Assembly (NCBI GenBank): GCA_016938155.1
Contig: JAFGVF010000254.1
Coordinates: forward strand, 1-5,838
Source of the DNA: Candidatus Cloacimonadota bacterium
Lineage (GTDB): Bacteria; Cloacimonadota; Cloacimonadia; Cloacimonadales; JAFGVF01
DNA length: 5,838 nucleotides
Reading direction: 5' to 3'
In this document: positions 970-4,186 of the stretch, one piece after another
Numbering within the stretch: the first letter of the stretch is position 1
Layout of the letters: each line of letters starts with the position of its first letter
Notes under the pieces: model-generated
Databases searched by the model: none
Told to the model about the DNA's origin: nothing
The model's input: the letters and a program-made list of their open reading frames with translations, nothing else
Position numbers and translations under genes: made by a program

Positions 970-1485
970 TTAGAACCGATAAAATAGACCTATTTGCGGA
1001 AGCTCTAATACAACTTCATCATCAGTTGTATAGTACACAGGGTATTCAAGGACAATGGCTGAATTTCTTGAAACATTGAACTCCAATCCCGGTCCACCTC
1101 CGAAGTGAGTTTCTCTGTAATAGTCATAGTGAGTTTCTCTTACATAATTATCAGCCCAATAAGACCACCTGTCATATTCATAATAGTTTTCCCAGTAAAC
1201 ATGGGAAATACCACCGAACGCATAGAAGCGTAAGATTGAGTAGGTTGATATGGTAAAGATTCCTTGAACACCTACATTCGTAAATCTTGAGTAGTCATAA
1301 GAGTCTTTTTCACCTGCCTTGTAAGTAATCCCCGCTACCTGTATCCCGAAATCTCCGAAGTACACTCGACAGCCAACTCCTGCACCTGAGAGTGGTCCGG
1401 CTATTAATCCTAATCTAACATCCGTTTCGCCTGCGAACAAAGTGATTGAAATACATAGAATTATCAATACACCCAGAGTTTTCAA
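970..1485 (-). CDS. Small secreted beta-barrel outer-membrane protein, paralog 3 (TTG start)
   Basis: A 171-residue protein of unknown specific function, the third of three tandem paralogs. Residues 1-18 form a signal peptide (MKT, hydrophobic core, LFA before GE). The mature part has alternating polar and hydrophobic stretches and ends in LFYRF; a final aromatic residue is the usual signal for insertion of outer-membrane beta-barrels. With paralog 2 it shares LGLIAG / LSGAGVG near 25-38, a G(V/L)QG turn near 72-75, RFYAFGGIS near 86-94 and PQIGLFYRF at the end. The start is TTG, chosen because AAGGGAGG lies just upstream and the resulting MKT matches the ATG-started paralog 2. Residues 95-123 are extremely aromatic (nine Tyr and three Trp), probably an extracellular loop or barrel rim. 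It lies 70 nt after paralog 2. Size suggests an eight-stranded barrel, but that is inference from composition. Confidence 0.8.
   Translation of the reverse strand: MKTLGVLIILCISITLFAGETDVRLGLIAGPLSGAGVGCRVYFGDFGIQVAGITYKAGEKDSYDYSRFTNVGVQGIFTISTYSILRFYAFGGISHVYWENYYEYDRWSYWADNYVRETHYDYYRETHFGGGPGLEFNVSRNSAIVLEYPVYYTTDDEVVLELPQIGLFYRF
1104..1140 (-). repeat. 24-nt tandem duplication inside barrel paralog 3
   Basis: AGTGAGTTTCTCT occurs at 1104-1116 and again at 1128-1140, a period of 24 nt or eight codons. In the protein it gives RETHY followed eight residues later by RETHF. The in-frame period suggests a small duplication that lengthened the aromatic loop; the two paralogs lack it. Confidence 0.55.
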
Positions 1486-1489
1486 AAGT

Positions 1490-1497
1490 CCTCCCTT
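1490..1497 (-). promoter_or_regulatory. Strong ribosome binding site before a TTG start
   Basis: AAGGGAGG on the minus strand, then ACTT and TTG. An unusually complete Shine-Dalgarno sequence pairs with the weak initiation codon of the third barrel gene and supports TTG at 1485 as the true start. Confidence 0.65.
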
Positions 1498-1555
1498 AAT
1501 GTACCTTCGAGTGAAAGGAAAGTATATAGAATAAGCTATAATTTAAGTTCTCGAA

Positions 1556-2071
1556 TCAGAATTTATAATATATCCCAATCTGCGGGATATACATCGTAAA
1601 AGAGCCGTCTGTATTATAGAATAAGGGCCATTCAATAGCGATATTGGCATGCTTCAAAAAAGTTACCTGCATCCCGATACCAGTTCCGATATTGTAAGAC
1701 CTATCAAGCTCTGCGTCTATTTTATCTCCGGCATATTCTCCTTCCATGGTATATACTTCTTCGGAAAACCTATTCTCATTATAGAAGAAAGAAACTCCTC
1801 CTAATAGATAAAACCGCACATCACTCGGTTTACTCAGAGTATAAAATCCCTGTAAACCTCCATTGAATTGTCTTTGATACTCCTCAGATTCTTTAGTACC
1901 ATCAACATAAGCAGCACCGGTTATCTGAAATCCTGCTTTTTCATAGAATTGACGGTAGGATAAGCCAATACCCGATACAGCACCGGCAGCAAAGCCGAGA
2001 TTTTTCTCCACTTCACCTGCAAATACTAATGCCGATGAAAGCACTAATATAAGCGTGATTATTGTTTTCAT
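1556..2071 (-). CDS. Small secreted beta-barrel outer-membrane protein, paralog 2
   Basis: A 171-residue protein, the middle member of the tandem trio; specific function unknown. Residues 1-18 are a clear signal peptide ending LVFA before GE. The mature sequence has short amphipathic stretches suited to beta-strands (LGFAAGAVSGIGLSYR near 25-40, GFQITGAAY near 47-55, GLQGFYTLS near 72-80, RFYLLGGVSFFY near 86-97) separated by acidic and polar loops. It ends in GIYYKF with the C-terminal Phe expected of Bam-inserted barrels. The EWPLFYNTDG segment (147-156) lines up with HWPLTFRNDG in paralog 1 and EYPVYYTTDD in paralog 3. The ATG at 2071 follows AGAGG with a 6-nt spacer and lies 12 nt after the stop of paralog 1, so the two are almost certainly co-transcribed. 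The closest general resemblance is to small OmpA-type or opacity-like barrels, a fold-level guess only. Confidence 0.82.
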   Translation of the reverse strand: MKTIITLILVLSSALVFAGEVEKNLGFAAGAVSGIGLSYRQFYEKAGFQITGAAYVDGTKESEEYQRQFNGGLQGFYTLSKPSDVRFYLLGGVSFFYNENRFSEEVYTMEGEYAGDKIDAELDRSYNIGTGIGMQVTFLKHANIAIEWPLFYNTDGSFTMYIPQIGIYYKF

Positions 2072-2083
2072 GATAAACCTCTA

Positions 2084-2608
2084 TTATTTAAATCTGATTA
2101 GAAAAGATGCCATTGGAACATACATGCTGATATACCCGTCATTTCTGAAAGTTAGAGGCCAATGGATGGAAAAAAGTCCCCAATCATTGAGGACGAAATC
2201 AAGACCCAGTCCCATTCCGTAATACATTTTCTCGTCAACATTCACTTTGTAGTCATTTGAGTCCAGATGCATTCCGTCAATTTCTTCCCGATCTTCTTTG
2301 TAGTGATATGAGCTGCCGGCGAAAAAAAAGAACGAGGTTCTTTCAAAATCCTTCAATTTATATGTACCCATAAAACCAGTGTTGAAATAAGCCTCATATT
2401 CGGAACCGCTTTTCCCATTTGCAGTACCACCTATTATCATTGAATAGCCAAGCGGTGTTCCTACATTTCGATACGCTAATCCTGTTGCACATAAATCACT
2501 TACATGGAATCCCATATATTGCCTTGTACCGGTCTCTTTAACTTCTTCAGCAAACACTACACAAACCATAAGTAAAATCATAAGACTTAACGCAATTTTC
2601 TTTAACAT
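2084..2608 (-). CDS. Small secreted beta-barrel outer-membrane protein, paralog 1
   Basis: A 174-residue protein, first gene of the predicted operon. An in-frame ATG at 2626 would extend it by six residues (MEDGET), but I prefer ATG at 2608: GGAG sits 5 nt upstream of it and it gives a classical signal peptide (MLKK, hydrophobic core, VVFA before EE, cleavage after about residue 20). The mature region is rich in Gly, Tyr and Phe, with strand-like segments near 52-62, 75-84 and 91-103. Polar, acidic residues 104-128 probably form an exposed loop. It ends in FLIRFK, so the final aromatic is followed by one extra Lys, unlike the other two copies. It shares with them the (H/E)(W/Y)P segment near 149-158 and the (I/V)P motif near the end, but is the most diverged. 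Two consecutive stops (TAA TAG) close the frame. Role in the outer membrane is inferred, substrate unknown. Confidence 0.8.
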   Translation of the reverse strand: MLKKIALSLMILLMVCVVFAEEVKETGTRQYMGFHVSDLCATGLAYRNVGTPLGYSMIIGGTANGKSGSEYEAYFNTGFMGTYKLKDFERTSFFFFAGSSYHYKEDREEIDGMHLDSNDYKVNVDEKMYYGMGLGLDFVLNDWGLFSIHWPLTFRNDGYISMYVPMASFLIRFK

Positions 2609-2613
2609 AGTTT

Positions 2614-2617
2614 CTCC
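2614..2617 (-). promoter_or_regulatory. Ribosome binding site that sets the start of barrel paralog 1
   Basis: GGAG with the 5-nt spacer AAACT before ATG at 2608. The more upstream in-frame ATG (2626) has no such site and would place charged residues ahead of the signal peptide. Confidence 0.6.
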
Positions 2618-2643
2618 ATCTTCCATTATTTGCTACCAATTCC

Positions 2644-2851: not shown

Positions 2852-2938
2852 TTTCCTGTAATGGCTTTACTACAATAATGCCCCTCTTTTGCTCCATTCA
2901 GCAATATATAGCTCTCTCATAACCCTCGCACTCATTTT

Positions 2939-3009
2939 GCACTGTCCTCCCACTGTGACACCGGGTGGGTAGTGGGTGCACAGTGCAGTCACAGTGGGAT
3001 CACAGTGCG
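2939..3009. repeat. Phased CACTGTG inverted repeat (11-nt units)
   Basis: The left arm (2939-2959) and right arm (2988-3008) pair over 21 positions with two mismatches, including the perfect 11-mer CCCACTGTGAC. Read on the minus strand, the right side is a run of 11-nt units: CGCACTGTGAT, CCCACTGTGAC, TGCACTGTGCA and the partly matching CCCACTACCCA. Cores fall at 3002, 2991 and 2980 on one strand and at 2940 and 2951 on the other, all 11 nt apart within each arm. The loop holds GGGTGGGTAGTGGGT (2963-2977) and the perfect palindrome TGCACAGTGCA (2977-2987). A period of 11 is not a codon multiple, so this is not coding repetition. It may be a dispersed extragenic repeat, a binding-site array read on one face of the helix, or a structured RNA. 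Confidence 0.75.
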
Positions 3010-3048
3010 TTGTTGATTCGAATGCAAAAGCCGAGGTAAAAGTAGCCT

Positions 3049-3074
3049 AACTCTGCATAAAACGCACTGTGGAT
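3049..3074 (+). repeat. Direct repeat with AACGCACTGTG core, copy 1
   Basis: These 26 nt recur at 3176-3201 with only two differences. The shared central block is GCATAAAACGCACTGTG. The AACGCACTGTG part is also the exact inverse of CACAGTGCGTT at 3001-3011, so this copy could fold back on the end of the phased repeat (11-bp stem). TAGC lies a few bases upstream in both copies and ATTCGAAT or ATTCGGAAT further upstream, so the repeated unit may be about 40-60 nt with an internal deletion in copy 2. Confidence 0.7.
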
Positions 3075-3080
3075 TGCTCG

Positions 3081-3175: not shown

Positions 3176-3201
3176 AACTCCGCATAAAACGCACTGTGAA
3201 T
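3176..3201 (+). repeat. Direct repeat with AACGCACTGTG core, copy 2
   Basis: Second copy of the 26-nt unit at 3049-3074, 127 nt away, with two substitutions. It is followed by a small hairpin, TCCTT-CAA-AAGGA (3201-3213), which the first copy lacks. Confidence 0.7.
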
Positions 3202-3379: not shown

Positions 3380-4186
3380 TTATCGATATTCCACAATACT
3401 TAAAACGAAAAGAATTACATAGAGGAAGGCTACAGAAATCAGGAAACTGTCAAAACGATCGAGGATACCGCCGTGACCGGGGATAAGATTAGAACTGTCC
3501 TTAACCTTCATGTCCCTTTTAATCAGCGATTCCATTAGGTCCCCGAGTTGTCCGATAAAGCCGGTTGTGAGAGCAGCTGCAATCAGCTGGGTTAATGTAA
3601 ATAAATCTCTGTTTATCAGTCTGATAACAAGCACGGCTATCAGCGAGAAAACAGCTCCTGCAATGAATCCTTCCAGCGATTTCTTGGGGCTGACAGGGAA
3701 GATACCGCGATGTTTACCAAGAGTCATTCCAATGAAATAGGCAAAGGAATCGGTAATCCATGTGAGGACTAAAATAAGAATCAAAAGCCAGTTACCGTTG
3801 TTAAAGTTTGTGATTTGGTAGATAGTTGAGGGTAGAATACCTGCATAAATGAAGATAAAAAGAGTGAATGATATGCTGCAGATGCTTCTATCAATTTTGT
3901 TTCTCAAAAGCCTGTTTGTAAAAATAACCACCATAAAGGGGAGCAGAATCACCGGCAGAGCTTGCCAACCGTATAAACTGACTGCAAAATACACCATTAT
4001 GGAAAAGGGTATGGATAGGATATTAGGAAGATTACCATTGCGTTTGAACATCCTGAATAGCTCCCAGGACATCAAAGCAGATAACAAACCACCGAAAATG
4101 AGTAAGGGGAGACCATCAGACCAGAAGACCCAAAGTATTATCGGAATACCTATTAATGCAACACTTACACGCTTAACAAGATTCAT
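3380..4186 (-). CDS. cdsA: Phosphatidate cytidylyltransferase (CDP-diglyceride synthase)
   Basis: A 268-residue inner-membrane enzyme that makes CDP-diacylglycerol and pyrophosphate from CTP and phosphatidic acid, the branch point for all bacterial phospholipids. The length is normal for the family. About seven or eight hydrophobic segments span the protein, starting at residues 7-21 and ending at 248-264. The family signature is complete at residues 220-246: it begins SLIKRD, includes KD at 229-230, and ends HGGILDRFD with the metal-binding Asp residues. Also conserved are TDSFAYFIG (145-153), SPKKSLEG (166-173) and GQLGDLMES (212-220). Its ATG shares its first base with the last base of the uppS stop codon (TAATG), and GGAG lies 7 nt upstream within uppS, so translation is probably coupled. 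The gene usually following in other bacteria, dxr or rseP, is absent; a repeat-rich gap follows. Confidence 0.97.
   Translation of the reverse strand: MNLVKRVSVALIGIPIILWVFWSDGLPLLIFGGLLSALMSWELFRMFKRNGNLPNILSIPFSIMVYFAVSLYGWQALPVILLPFMVVIFTNRLLRNKIDRSICSISFTLFIFIYAGILPSTIYQITNFNNGNWLLILILVLTWITDSFAYFIGMTLGKHRGIFPVSPKKSLEGFIAGAVFSLIAVLVIRLINRDLFTLTQLIAAALTTGFIGQLGDLMESLIKRDMKVKDSSNLIPGHGGILDRFDSFLISVAFLYVILFVLSIVEYR

What the first reader, a model, noticed from the sequence alone, without database searches (positions are those of the whole stretch)
2939..3009. Helically phased CACTGTG array forming a large inverted repeat with a G-rich loop
Five copies of the CACTGT core sit 11 nt apart within each arm, three on one strand and two on the other, arranged as a near-perfect 21-bp inverted repeat. 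The 28-nt loop contains three GGG runs (2963-2965, 2967-2969, 2974-2976), with a fourth at 2996-2998, so a G-quadruplex competing with the hairpin is conceivable. Eleven-nt spacing puts every core on nearly the same face of DNA, as in an operator array. Seen directly: the units, spacing and pairing. Inferred: that it is a functional binding array, a dispersed extragenic repeat family, or a structured RNA.
Basis: partly seen in the sequence, partly recalled or inferred. Interest (0 to 1): 0.7.

Follow-up and report, generated by a model that had tools for sequence, protein, structure and literature searches.

The report
Dispersed 11-bp-phased palindromic DNA arrays
The array is one of at least 37 copies, found between genes of a little-known bacterium, of a 127-base DNA element built from 11-base steps; it likely serves as a landing strip where a still unknown protein would line up along one face of the double helix, and arrays built on the same plan with other core letters occur in related bacteria.

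Summary
Observation confirmed, but the unit is larger than reported. The array is one copy of a dispersed family: 38 places in the window's own genome (37 strong) and 13 (6 strong) in its congener Ca. Zophobacter franzmannii (Cloacimonadota); among 124 genomes of the phylum only these two and, weakly, one more respond. The element is 127 bp (window 2894-3020), two inverted arms of 11-nt units, plus a separate CACTGT box downstream (3053-3074; a second at 3180-3201). 31 of 34 scored copies fit the frame; two others are one and two units shorter, though two of three shortened congener copies break the rule. Array-to-box spacing falls at 61-62, 71-73 and 82 nt, steps of about one DNA turn. The arms do not co-vary, so selection on a hairpin is not supported; in the one orthologous pair cores (45/50) and box (21/22) are kept better than linkers (38/55). 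No G-quadruplex motif in 31 copies. Best reading: a docking array for a cooperative DNA-binding protein, usually upstream of a gene in one orientation (21 of 24). The same plan with other cores occurs in other genera. Protein and function are not shown.

The parts
2894..3020 (+). the 127-bp two-arm element (type B), box downstream; 11-nt units run in from both ends, axis at 2957
   Evidence: terminal units 116 nt apart here and in all 14 of 36 stretches where both were found near an array; frame fitted in 31 of 34 scored copies; model match 2895-3018, E 3.0e-26
2894..2904 (+). left terminal unit CCATTCAGCAA (family CTATTCANCAA)
3010..3020 (-). right terminal unit, TTGTTGATTCG on + (family TTGNTGAATAG)
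2940..2946 (+). core CACTGTC, left unit 4
2951..2957 (+). core CACTGTG, left unit 5
2979..2985 (-). core CACTGTG, right unit 3
2990..2996 (-). core CACTGTG, right unit 2
3001..3007 (-). core CACTGTG, right unit 1
3053..3074 (+). box 1, CTGCATAAAACGCACTGTGGAT; starts 32 nt after the element's end
3180..3201 (+). box 2, CCGCATAAAACGCACTGTGAAT; 127 nt after box 1 here and in L118 and L122
2835..2893 (+). left flank shared with the copies in L118, L119 and L134
   Evidence: pairwise BLAST of these copies starts 57-59 nt before the element
2084..2626 (-). 180-aa ORF with a start that looks like a signal peptide (by eye), no Pfam match; its start lies 267 nt from the element on the side away from the boxes
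3380..4186 (-). cdsA homologue (PF01148), gene on the box side

Best explanation
The array is one copy of a dispersed intergenic DNA element (two inverted arms of 11-bp units with CACTG cores in a 127-bp frame, plus a separate CACTGT box) that likely works as a helically phased docking array, on which one sequence-specific protein would bind core after core along one face of the double helix and would contact the box a whole number of DNA turns away. Shown: copy number, frame, spacer steps, conservation of cores and box in one orthologous pair, absence of arm co-variation, placement upstream of genes in one orientation. Inferred: that a protein binds, that binding is cooperative, that the same protein binds the box, and that the outcome is local control of transcription or DNA shape at the neighbouring promoter. 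Not known: the protein, and how the copies spread.
For: 38 places in the own genome. 31 copies fit the 127-nt frame at a mean ungapped identity of 67%, down to 51%, so letters change while length holds; two more lack one and two units (116, 105 nt). Distance from last core to box core in 27 copies: 61 (1), 62 (13), 71 (3), 72 (8), 73 (1), 82 (1); three shortened G001 copies give 71, 71, 72 (read). Among 238 of 310 units that match CACTG at 4 or more letters, core positions carry 1.3-2.0 bits (raised by that choice), linker positions 0.2-1.0. In the one orthologous pair cores are 45/50, box 21/22, linkers 38/55, spacer 22/43 identical. Pairing is no better within a copy than after shuffling (74.0% against 74.8%). 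The gene on the side away from the box points away from the element in 21 of 24 cases (20 of 23 counting the orthologous pair once; P 0.0003 and 0.0005). Families with the same plan and other cores occur in G011 and G070, also without significant arm co-variation.
Against: No binding protein was identified and no binding was measured. Two of three shortened G001 copies have lengths (102 and 55 nt by terminal units) that are not 127 minus whole units. The whole element in the orthologous pair (94/127) is no better kept than the left intergenic stretch (166/229). Type-B linkers pair slightly better within copies than in shuffles (0.446 against 0.419, none of 2000 reached it). Few independent spacer changes underlie the 32/42/52 steps, because copies share ancestry. 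With ORFs of 70 aa and more the placement count was 20 of 25; the bias is absent in G011 and G070, and orientation also follows GC skew weakly (18 of 25 negative, P 0.043). Neighbouring genes share no evident function. At four own-genome sites the matching gene side in G001 lacks the element.
Confidence: 0.53

Rival explanations
1. Non-autonomous transposon: two transposon ends back to back; the phased cores would be binding sites of a transposase encoded elsewhere, and the arrays have no host function.
For: Dispersed copies, up to 97% identical, at unrelated loci; terminal inverted units; sharp ends of similarity; found in one genus, with lineage-specific presence; only one orthologous copy seen.
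Against: No parent transposon was found (the 72%-complete assembly limits this) and target duplications were not tested; box distances are stepped; cores and box are conserved across two species at a shared site; strong orientation bias to neighbouring genes.
Confidence: 0.28
2. A structured RNA or hairpin (small RNA, untranslated region or terminator) in which the arms pair.
For: The window folds better than shuffles as RNA and as DNA (z -2.3, -3.9, -3.3), and L041 with z -4.7. The in-register pairing (74.0% of cells) far exceeds pairing with the partner slid by 1-3 columns (33-49%), as any inverted set of cores would.
Against: No co-variation: 74.0% of cells pair against 74.8% in shuffles, covariation score 0.103 against 0.120; none significant in G011 and G070 (G011 linkers P 0.076); no Rfam match (best permissive hit E 0.36); no terminator-like site.
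Confidence: 0.12
3. G-quadruplex competing with the hairpin.
For: Three GGG runs in the loop and a fourth at 2996-2998.
Against: 0 of 31 copies have a canonical four-run motif with loops of 1-7 nt on either strand, window included.
Confidence: 0.01
4. Integron attC recombination sites.
For: Long imperfect palindromes with conserved ends, one copy reading RYYYAAC ... GTTRRRY.
Against: Both signatures (consensus recalled) occur together in 1 of 31 copies; copies lie singly beside unrelated and partly housekeeping genes. Integrase genes were not searched.
Confidence: 0.01

Closest known systems
REP elements / REPINs with RAYT (tyrosine) transposases
   Same: Dispersed, extragenic, palindromic, lineage-specific, many copies.
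   Different: REPs are 20-40 bp, most with a GTAG or CGTC motif at one end (abstract and passages of PMC3733652); here 127 bp, no consistent tag, and the contigs with Y1 transposase genes show no model match.
Plasmid centromere parC bound by ParR (ribbon-helix-helix)
   Same: Arrays of about 11-bp repeats; ParR of plasmid R1 needs at least two 11-bp repeats (passage of PMC9426499); R1 parC has ten direct repeats flanking a promoter (a reference title seen there).
   Different: There direct repeats at a plasmid site beside parM/parR; here inverted arms, tens of copies between chromosomal-type genes, and no par gene among the 27 proteins checked in Pfam.
MITEs
   Same: Short, non-coding, terminal inverted repeats, many copies.
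   Different: No parent transposon found and target duplications not tested; internally phased sites and a stepped-distance outside box are not usual MITE traits (recalled).
Phased operator arrays (regulators binding every DNA turn)
   Same: Same-face repeated sites near promoters.
   Different: Usually one or few operons; here tens of loci without evident shared gene function, in a fixed frame. Recalled, not tested.

Membership tests
REP/REPIN | 20-40 bp palindrome with a GTAG or CGTC tag at one end | tested here: not met
   127-bp unit; within 10 nt of either end, either strand: GTAG in 3, CGTC in 0, GGAG in 4 of 31 copies
REP/REPIN | copies flank a RAYT (Y1) transposase gene | tested here: not met
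   Y1_Tnp: 2 matches on 2 contigs of G000, 5 on 5 contigs of G001; none of these contigs is among the model matches (which scored 150 of 371 and 150 of 277 candidates)
MITE | terminal inverted repeats and many copies | tested here: met
   CTATTCANCAA / TTGNTGAATAG, 5-10 of 10 fixed letters kept on the left, 6-10 on the right, in 31 copies; 38 places
MITE | target-site duplication | not tested
   flanks were only looked at by eye
MITE | autonomous relative with the same ends | tested here: inconclusive
   own-genome model matches are whole-length or cut by contig ends, but the assembly is 72% complete in 427 contigs and not all candidates were scored
Structured RNA | compensatory base changes in the stem | tested here: not met
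   (14 type-A copies, 62 pairs); one search agrees except for type-B linkers
Integron attC | RYYYAAC and GTTRRRY at the ends (recalled) | tested here: not met
   1 of 31 copies
ParR-parC centromere | array next to parM/parR on a plasmid | tested here: not met
   no par gene among 7 window and 20 neighbour proteins; no plasmid or phage record similar to 2894-3075
ParR-parC centromere | bound by a ribbon-helix-helix protein | not testable with these tools
   no binding data

The most novel reading that the evidence does not exclude
Cloacimonadota carry a class of chromosomal nucleoprotein arrays not described before: several lineages have their own dispersed set of two-arm arrays with cores every 11 bp (CACTG in Zophobacter, CATTG and GTTAC in Cloacimonas, CATTG with GC-rich linkers in another genus), read by a fast-diverging, cooperative DNA-binding protein that wraps or bridges promoter DNA and turns the chromosome into a set of phased docking stations.
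Probability: 0.3. Interest if true: 0.85.

Novelty: new variant of a known kind. Interest (0 to 1): 0.63.

Why it matters
Bacterial dispersed palindromes are mostly explained by RNA hairpins or by REP transposases (recalled). Here the conserved thing is neither pairing nor overall sequence but phased cores and their distance to a box, and the same plan is found with different core letters in other genera of a little-known phylum. If a protein is found, this would be a new way of marking tens of promoters with ready-made phased arrays; if instead a transposase binds, it would be a transposon whose ends are organised by helical phase. Either outcome can be tested directly from the sequences listed here.

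Tried and rejected
Rfam at gathering and permissive thresholds: nothing at gathering; one chance-level hit. tRNA/tmRNA: none. Plasmid and phage records similar to 2894-3075: none. Viral contigs: the box pattern gave 0; four CACTG cores at 11 nt gave 39 stretches, of which 0 have a phased inverted arm nearby and 25 have only one or two distinct units, as simple tandem repeats do. The box pattern in named genomes gave 7 exact hits, 3 in Ca. Zophobacter franzmannii and 4 single ones elsewhere, about what I estimated by hand for chance. The window site in G001: cdsA is followed directly by tpiA without array, but gene order differs, so it is not a clean empty site. No terminator-like site; 4 promoter-like sites against 2.1 (sd 1.6) in shuffles. 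A common function of neighbouring genes: none evident.

Rows dropped. Searches fetched 35 stretches from a listing capped at 100 of 115 matches; one of them (C249) holds no array. In one search five own-genome copies cut by contig ends were below the score and are in no frame count, nor are C256, C426 and C161, seen only. The search looked for a 127-nt window, so the frame is partly built in; independent of that, both terminal units were found near an array in 14 of 36 stretches, 116 nt apart in all 14, and MAFFT needed gaps in 2 of 34 rows. In some searches three of 34 copies (L103, L108, L139) were left out of the frame counts, two of them because they are shorter. In one search L124 was put into group A in the wrong orientation and L108 and L139 were out of register; the clean pair test is, with 14 of the 17 rows of that group. 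In one search five of 34 copies without a box were left out and 5 of the other 29 had no gene called on the non-box side. In one search one of 20 G070 loci (L271, cut by a contig end) was dropped. In one search one pattern hit (L108 at -104) lies inside the array and is not a box; the degenerate box of L116 at +31 was not matched.

Literature (search listings, and passages): searches showed no description of such arrays in Cloacimonadota; one search returned nothing. The library lacks most subscription papers; the Cloacimonas genome paper of 2008 was not looked up.

Full report
WHAT IS THERE. The five CACTGT cores, 11 nt apart, three on one strand and two on the other, and the 21-nt inverted repeat are as described. 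The window is contig C97 of a 2.38-Mb, 427-contig, 72%-complete genome. The one other genome of its genus held here, G001, has contigs of the same lengths with the box at the same positions as contigs named Candidatus Zophobacter franzmannii, phylum Cloacimonadota. That name comes from a study of an Antarctic lake (PMC8542988; search listing and passages seen; the terms repeat, palindrom, CRISPR and transpos brought up no such arrays).

IT IS A DISPERSED FAMILY. CACTGTGNNNNCACTGTG with up to two mismatches gives 115 matches in the own genome, 2 for the backward control; with up to one, 50 and 0. I fetched 35 stretches, then 36 contigs, 35 of them whole. Scoring for a two-arm frame found 34 copies, 30 in the own genome and 4 in the congener. 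A sequence-only model built from them finds 38 places in the own genome (37 with E of 5.2e-12 or lower, C161 weak at 9e-4) and 13 in the congener (6 strong, 7 weak or partial), and none in five further genomes of the order. Across 124 genomes of the phylum, with stricter filters, only G000, G001 and, weakly, G038 respond. The true number is probably higher: 12 of 34 copies lie within 400 nt of a contig end where 5.2 are expected, as if copies break the assembly.

THE FRAME. In 14 of 36 stretches both terminal units (CTATTCANCAA, TTGNTGAATAG, up to two mismatches) were found near an array, and in all 14 they start 116 nt apart, so the element is 127 nt. It is made of 11-nt units counted in from both ends; the fixed part of a unit is CACTG at positions 3-7, the rest is loose. 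31 of 34 scored copies fit the frame without a gap although they average 67% identity and fall to 51%; the scoring looked for this length, so the 14 free measurements and the near gap-free MAFFT alignment are the better evidence. Two other copies, L108 and L139, are shorter by exactly one and two units (116 and 105 nt); the third, L103, is degenerate. Against a strict rule: of three shortened G001 copies one is 55 nt shorter (L109, five units), but L104 and L107 are 25 and 72 nt shorter (lengths corrected to the 11-nt terminal units). Within their arms the 11-nt phase holds. Two main types exist: A with the tight centre CACTGTTTCAGTG, and B, to which the window belongs, with a G-rich centre that reads as worn units.

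THE BOX. Outside the array stands a single further core in a longer conserved box, CYGCATAAAANNCACTGTRRAT. I used the box to orient the copies, so that it lies on one side is partly by definition; but no copy has boxes in both directions, and with this orientation the unit next to the terminal one carries an exact core in 27 of 31 copies on the box side and in 1 of 31 on the other, so box and array asymmetry go together. The box starts 31-32 nt (14 copies), 41-43 nt (12 copies) or 52 nt (1 copy) after the element; from the last core to the box core that is 61-62, 71-73 and 82 nt in 27 copies, and 71, 71, 72 in three shortened G001 copies (read). The steps are close to one turn of B-DNA. Because copies share ancestry, only a few independent changes lie behind them. 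Eleven copies have another box 35 nt before the element, and three, the window among them, a second box 127 nt after the first. Similarity between copies stops near the box end on one side and near the terminal unit or the outer box on the other.

PAIRING IS NOT WHAT IS KEPT. If the hairpin mattered, the two arms of a copy should match each other better than arms of different copies. They do not. On 14 gap-free type-A copies, 74.0% of cells form a standard pair against 74.8% after shuffling partners (452 of 500 shuffles as high), and the covariation score is 0.103 against 0.120 (477 of 500). Sliding partners by 1-3 columns drops pairing to 33-49%, as expected of inverted cores. My own test on 17 and 17 copies agrees, except that type-B linkers pair slightly better within copies (0.446 against 0.419, none of 2000 shuffles); subfamily structure is a likely but unproven reason. 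Good folding energies are what inverted cores give by themselves. Rfam has no match.

WHAT IS KEPT. One copy is orthologous between the two species (L117 in G000, L111 in G001; similarity runs from -598 to 815 around the element). There the box is 21/22 identical, cores 45/50, linkers 38/55, the array-to-box spacer 22/43; the element as a whole is 94/127, no better than the left intergenic stretch at 166/229; the flanking genes are 82-90%. This is one pair, but the order (box and cores high, linkers and spacer low) is what a set of binding sites gives.

WHERE THE COPIES SIT. Copies lie between genes in the stretches examined; a few ORFs of 120-131 aa overlap them, which I take as spurious. For the 29 copies oriented by a box, a gene of at least 100 aa on the other side could be called in 24, and in 21 of these it starts beside the element and runs away from it (P 0.0003; 20 of 23 counting the orthologous pair once, P 0.0005), at 99-691 nt, median 287. 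With ORFs from 70 aa the count was 20 of 25. The gene on the box side shows no such bias (15 against 9). In the window this is a 180-aa ORF with a signal-peptide-like start. Neighbours include EF-G, trigger factor, a C25 peptidase with a secretion tail, an SLT/LysM protein, a citrate-type transporter and a methyladenine glycosylase, with no evident shared function. Orientation also follows local GC skew weakly (18 of 25, P 0.043), so a replication-strand cause is not excluded.

TURNOVER. Nine own-genome sites were looked up in G001 through their gene flanks. Flanks of six gave a hit, one of them weak (L122) and not followed. At the tilS/LysM site (L120) both sides are conserved and G001 has other sequence and no array; beside rpoD (L128), at L129 and at L135 one side or unlinked sides are conserved and no array lies within the G001 stretch held; for L141 the contig ends too soon to tell. 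With the one shared copy this speaks for gain and loss, that is, for spreading. No carrier was found: the Y1 transposase genes of both genomes (2 and 5 matches) lie on contigs without a model match.

THE SAME PLAN ELSEWHERE. Three CAYTG cores at 11-nt phase match 17 times in G011 (CATTGCTTACC units), 10 in G038 (CATTGCCCACC) and 27 in G070 (CATTGCGCGGT); 11 of 124 genomes have any match, six of them a single one. The backward control, meant as noise, rang 66 times in G011, 20 in G020 and 9 in G044; it is a further array family with GTTAC cores, two-armed in G011 and, in the stretches seen, one-armed in G020. In G011 (a single 2,246,820-base contig, by that length probably Ca. Cloacimonas acidaminovorans, recalled) cores stand at 0, 11, 22, 41, 52, 63 in 15 of 20 fetched loci, and the other five keep the phase and the 19-nt central gap with a unit lost, changed or added; in G070 the frame is 0, 11, 22, 40, 51, 62, with 26 to 30 of 30 core letters matched in 19 loci. 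Arms show no significant co-variation (G011 linkers 0.500 against 0.482, P 0.076; G070 linkers 0.833 against 0.834). These copies do not show the placement bias of the Zophobacter family. Whether the families descend from one another or arose in parallel I cannot say. Four phased CACTG cores also turn up in 39 viral contigs, but none of these has an inverted phased arm, so the two-arm frame, not the period alone, is the distinctive trait.

HOW IT MOST LIKELY WORKS. Shown: a repeated frame whose letters drift while cores, phase and box distance mostly hold. Inferred: a sequence-specific protein binds the cores in register on one face, cooperatively, from both arms toward the centre, and contacts the box across a whole number of turns; at most sites this complex would form some 100-700 bp upstream of a gene and would influence its transcription or local DNA shape. 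ParR on the 11-bp repeats of plasmid R1 is the nearest mechanism with a protein in hand (passage of PMC9426499), as an analogy only. The main rival, that the binder is a transposase and the element a minimal transposon, shares the binding-array part and differs in purpose; the turnover data favour it, the stepped box distance, the placement bias and the cross-species conservation disfavour it.

NOVELTY. It fails tested features of REP elements, attC sites and plasmid centromeres. I found no description in the search listings, in a library without most subscription papers. I call it a new variant of a known kind, dispersed extragenic palindromes, because the docking function is inferred; with a protein in hand it could become a class of its own.

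Noticed in passing
window 970-2626 (-): Three ORFs of 171, 171 and 180 aa in a row, similar in layout (by eye), with signal-peptide-like starts and aromatic ends as in small outer-membrane barrels; no Pfam match.
   Followed up: partly
L232-L251 (G011): GTTAC family: 66 pattern matches, about 40 places, between coordinates 283 kb and 2,157 kb of a 2,247-kb contig; none in the 370 kb around coordinate 0. Origin position not determined.
   Followed up: partly
L222, L225, L231 (G020): GTTACCATCCC units in direct tandem at 11-nt period, without an inverted arm in the three stretches seen; 20 matches in the genome.
   Followed up: no
L016, L019, right of the box: Another short palindromic repeat (GTTCCCAAGCCCCAGCTTGGGAA) lies just beyond at least these two type-B copies.
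   Followed up: no
L281-L319: 39 viral-contig stretches with CACTG cores at 11-nt period, one-armed; 25 have only one or two distinct units.
   Followed up: partly
L133, L143, L148: These type-A copies seem to have two left-type arms and no usual box; near L143 and L148 a shared sequence GCTAAGTT...ACYACTG stands on the right instead (by eye).
   Followed up: partly
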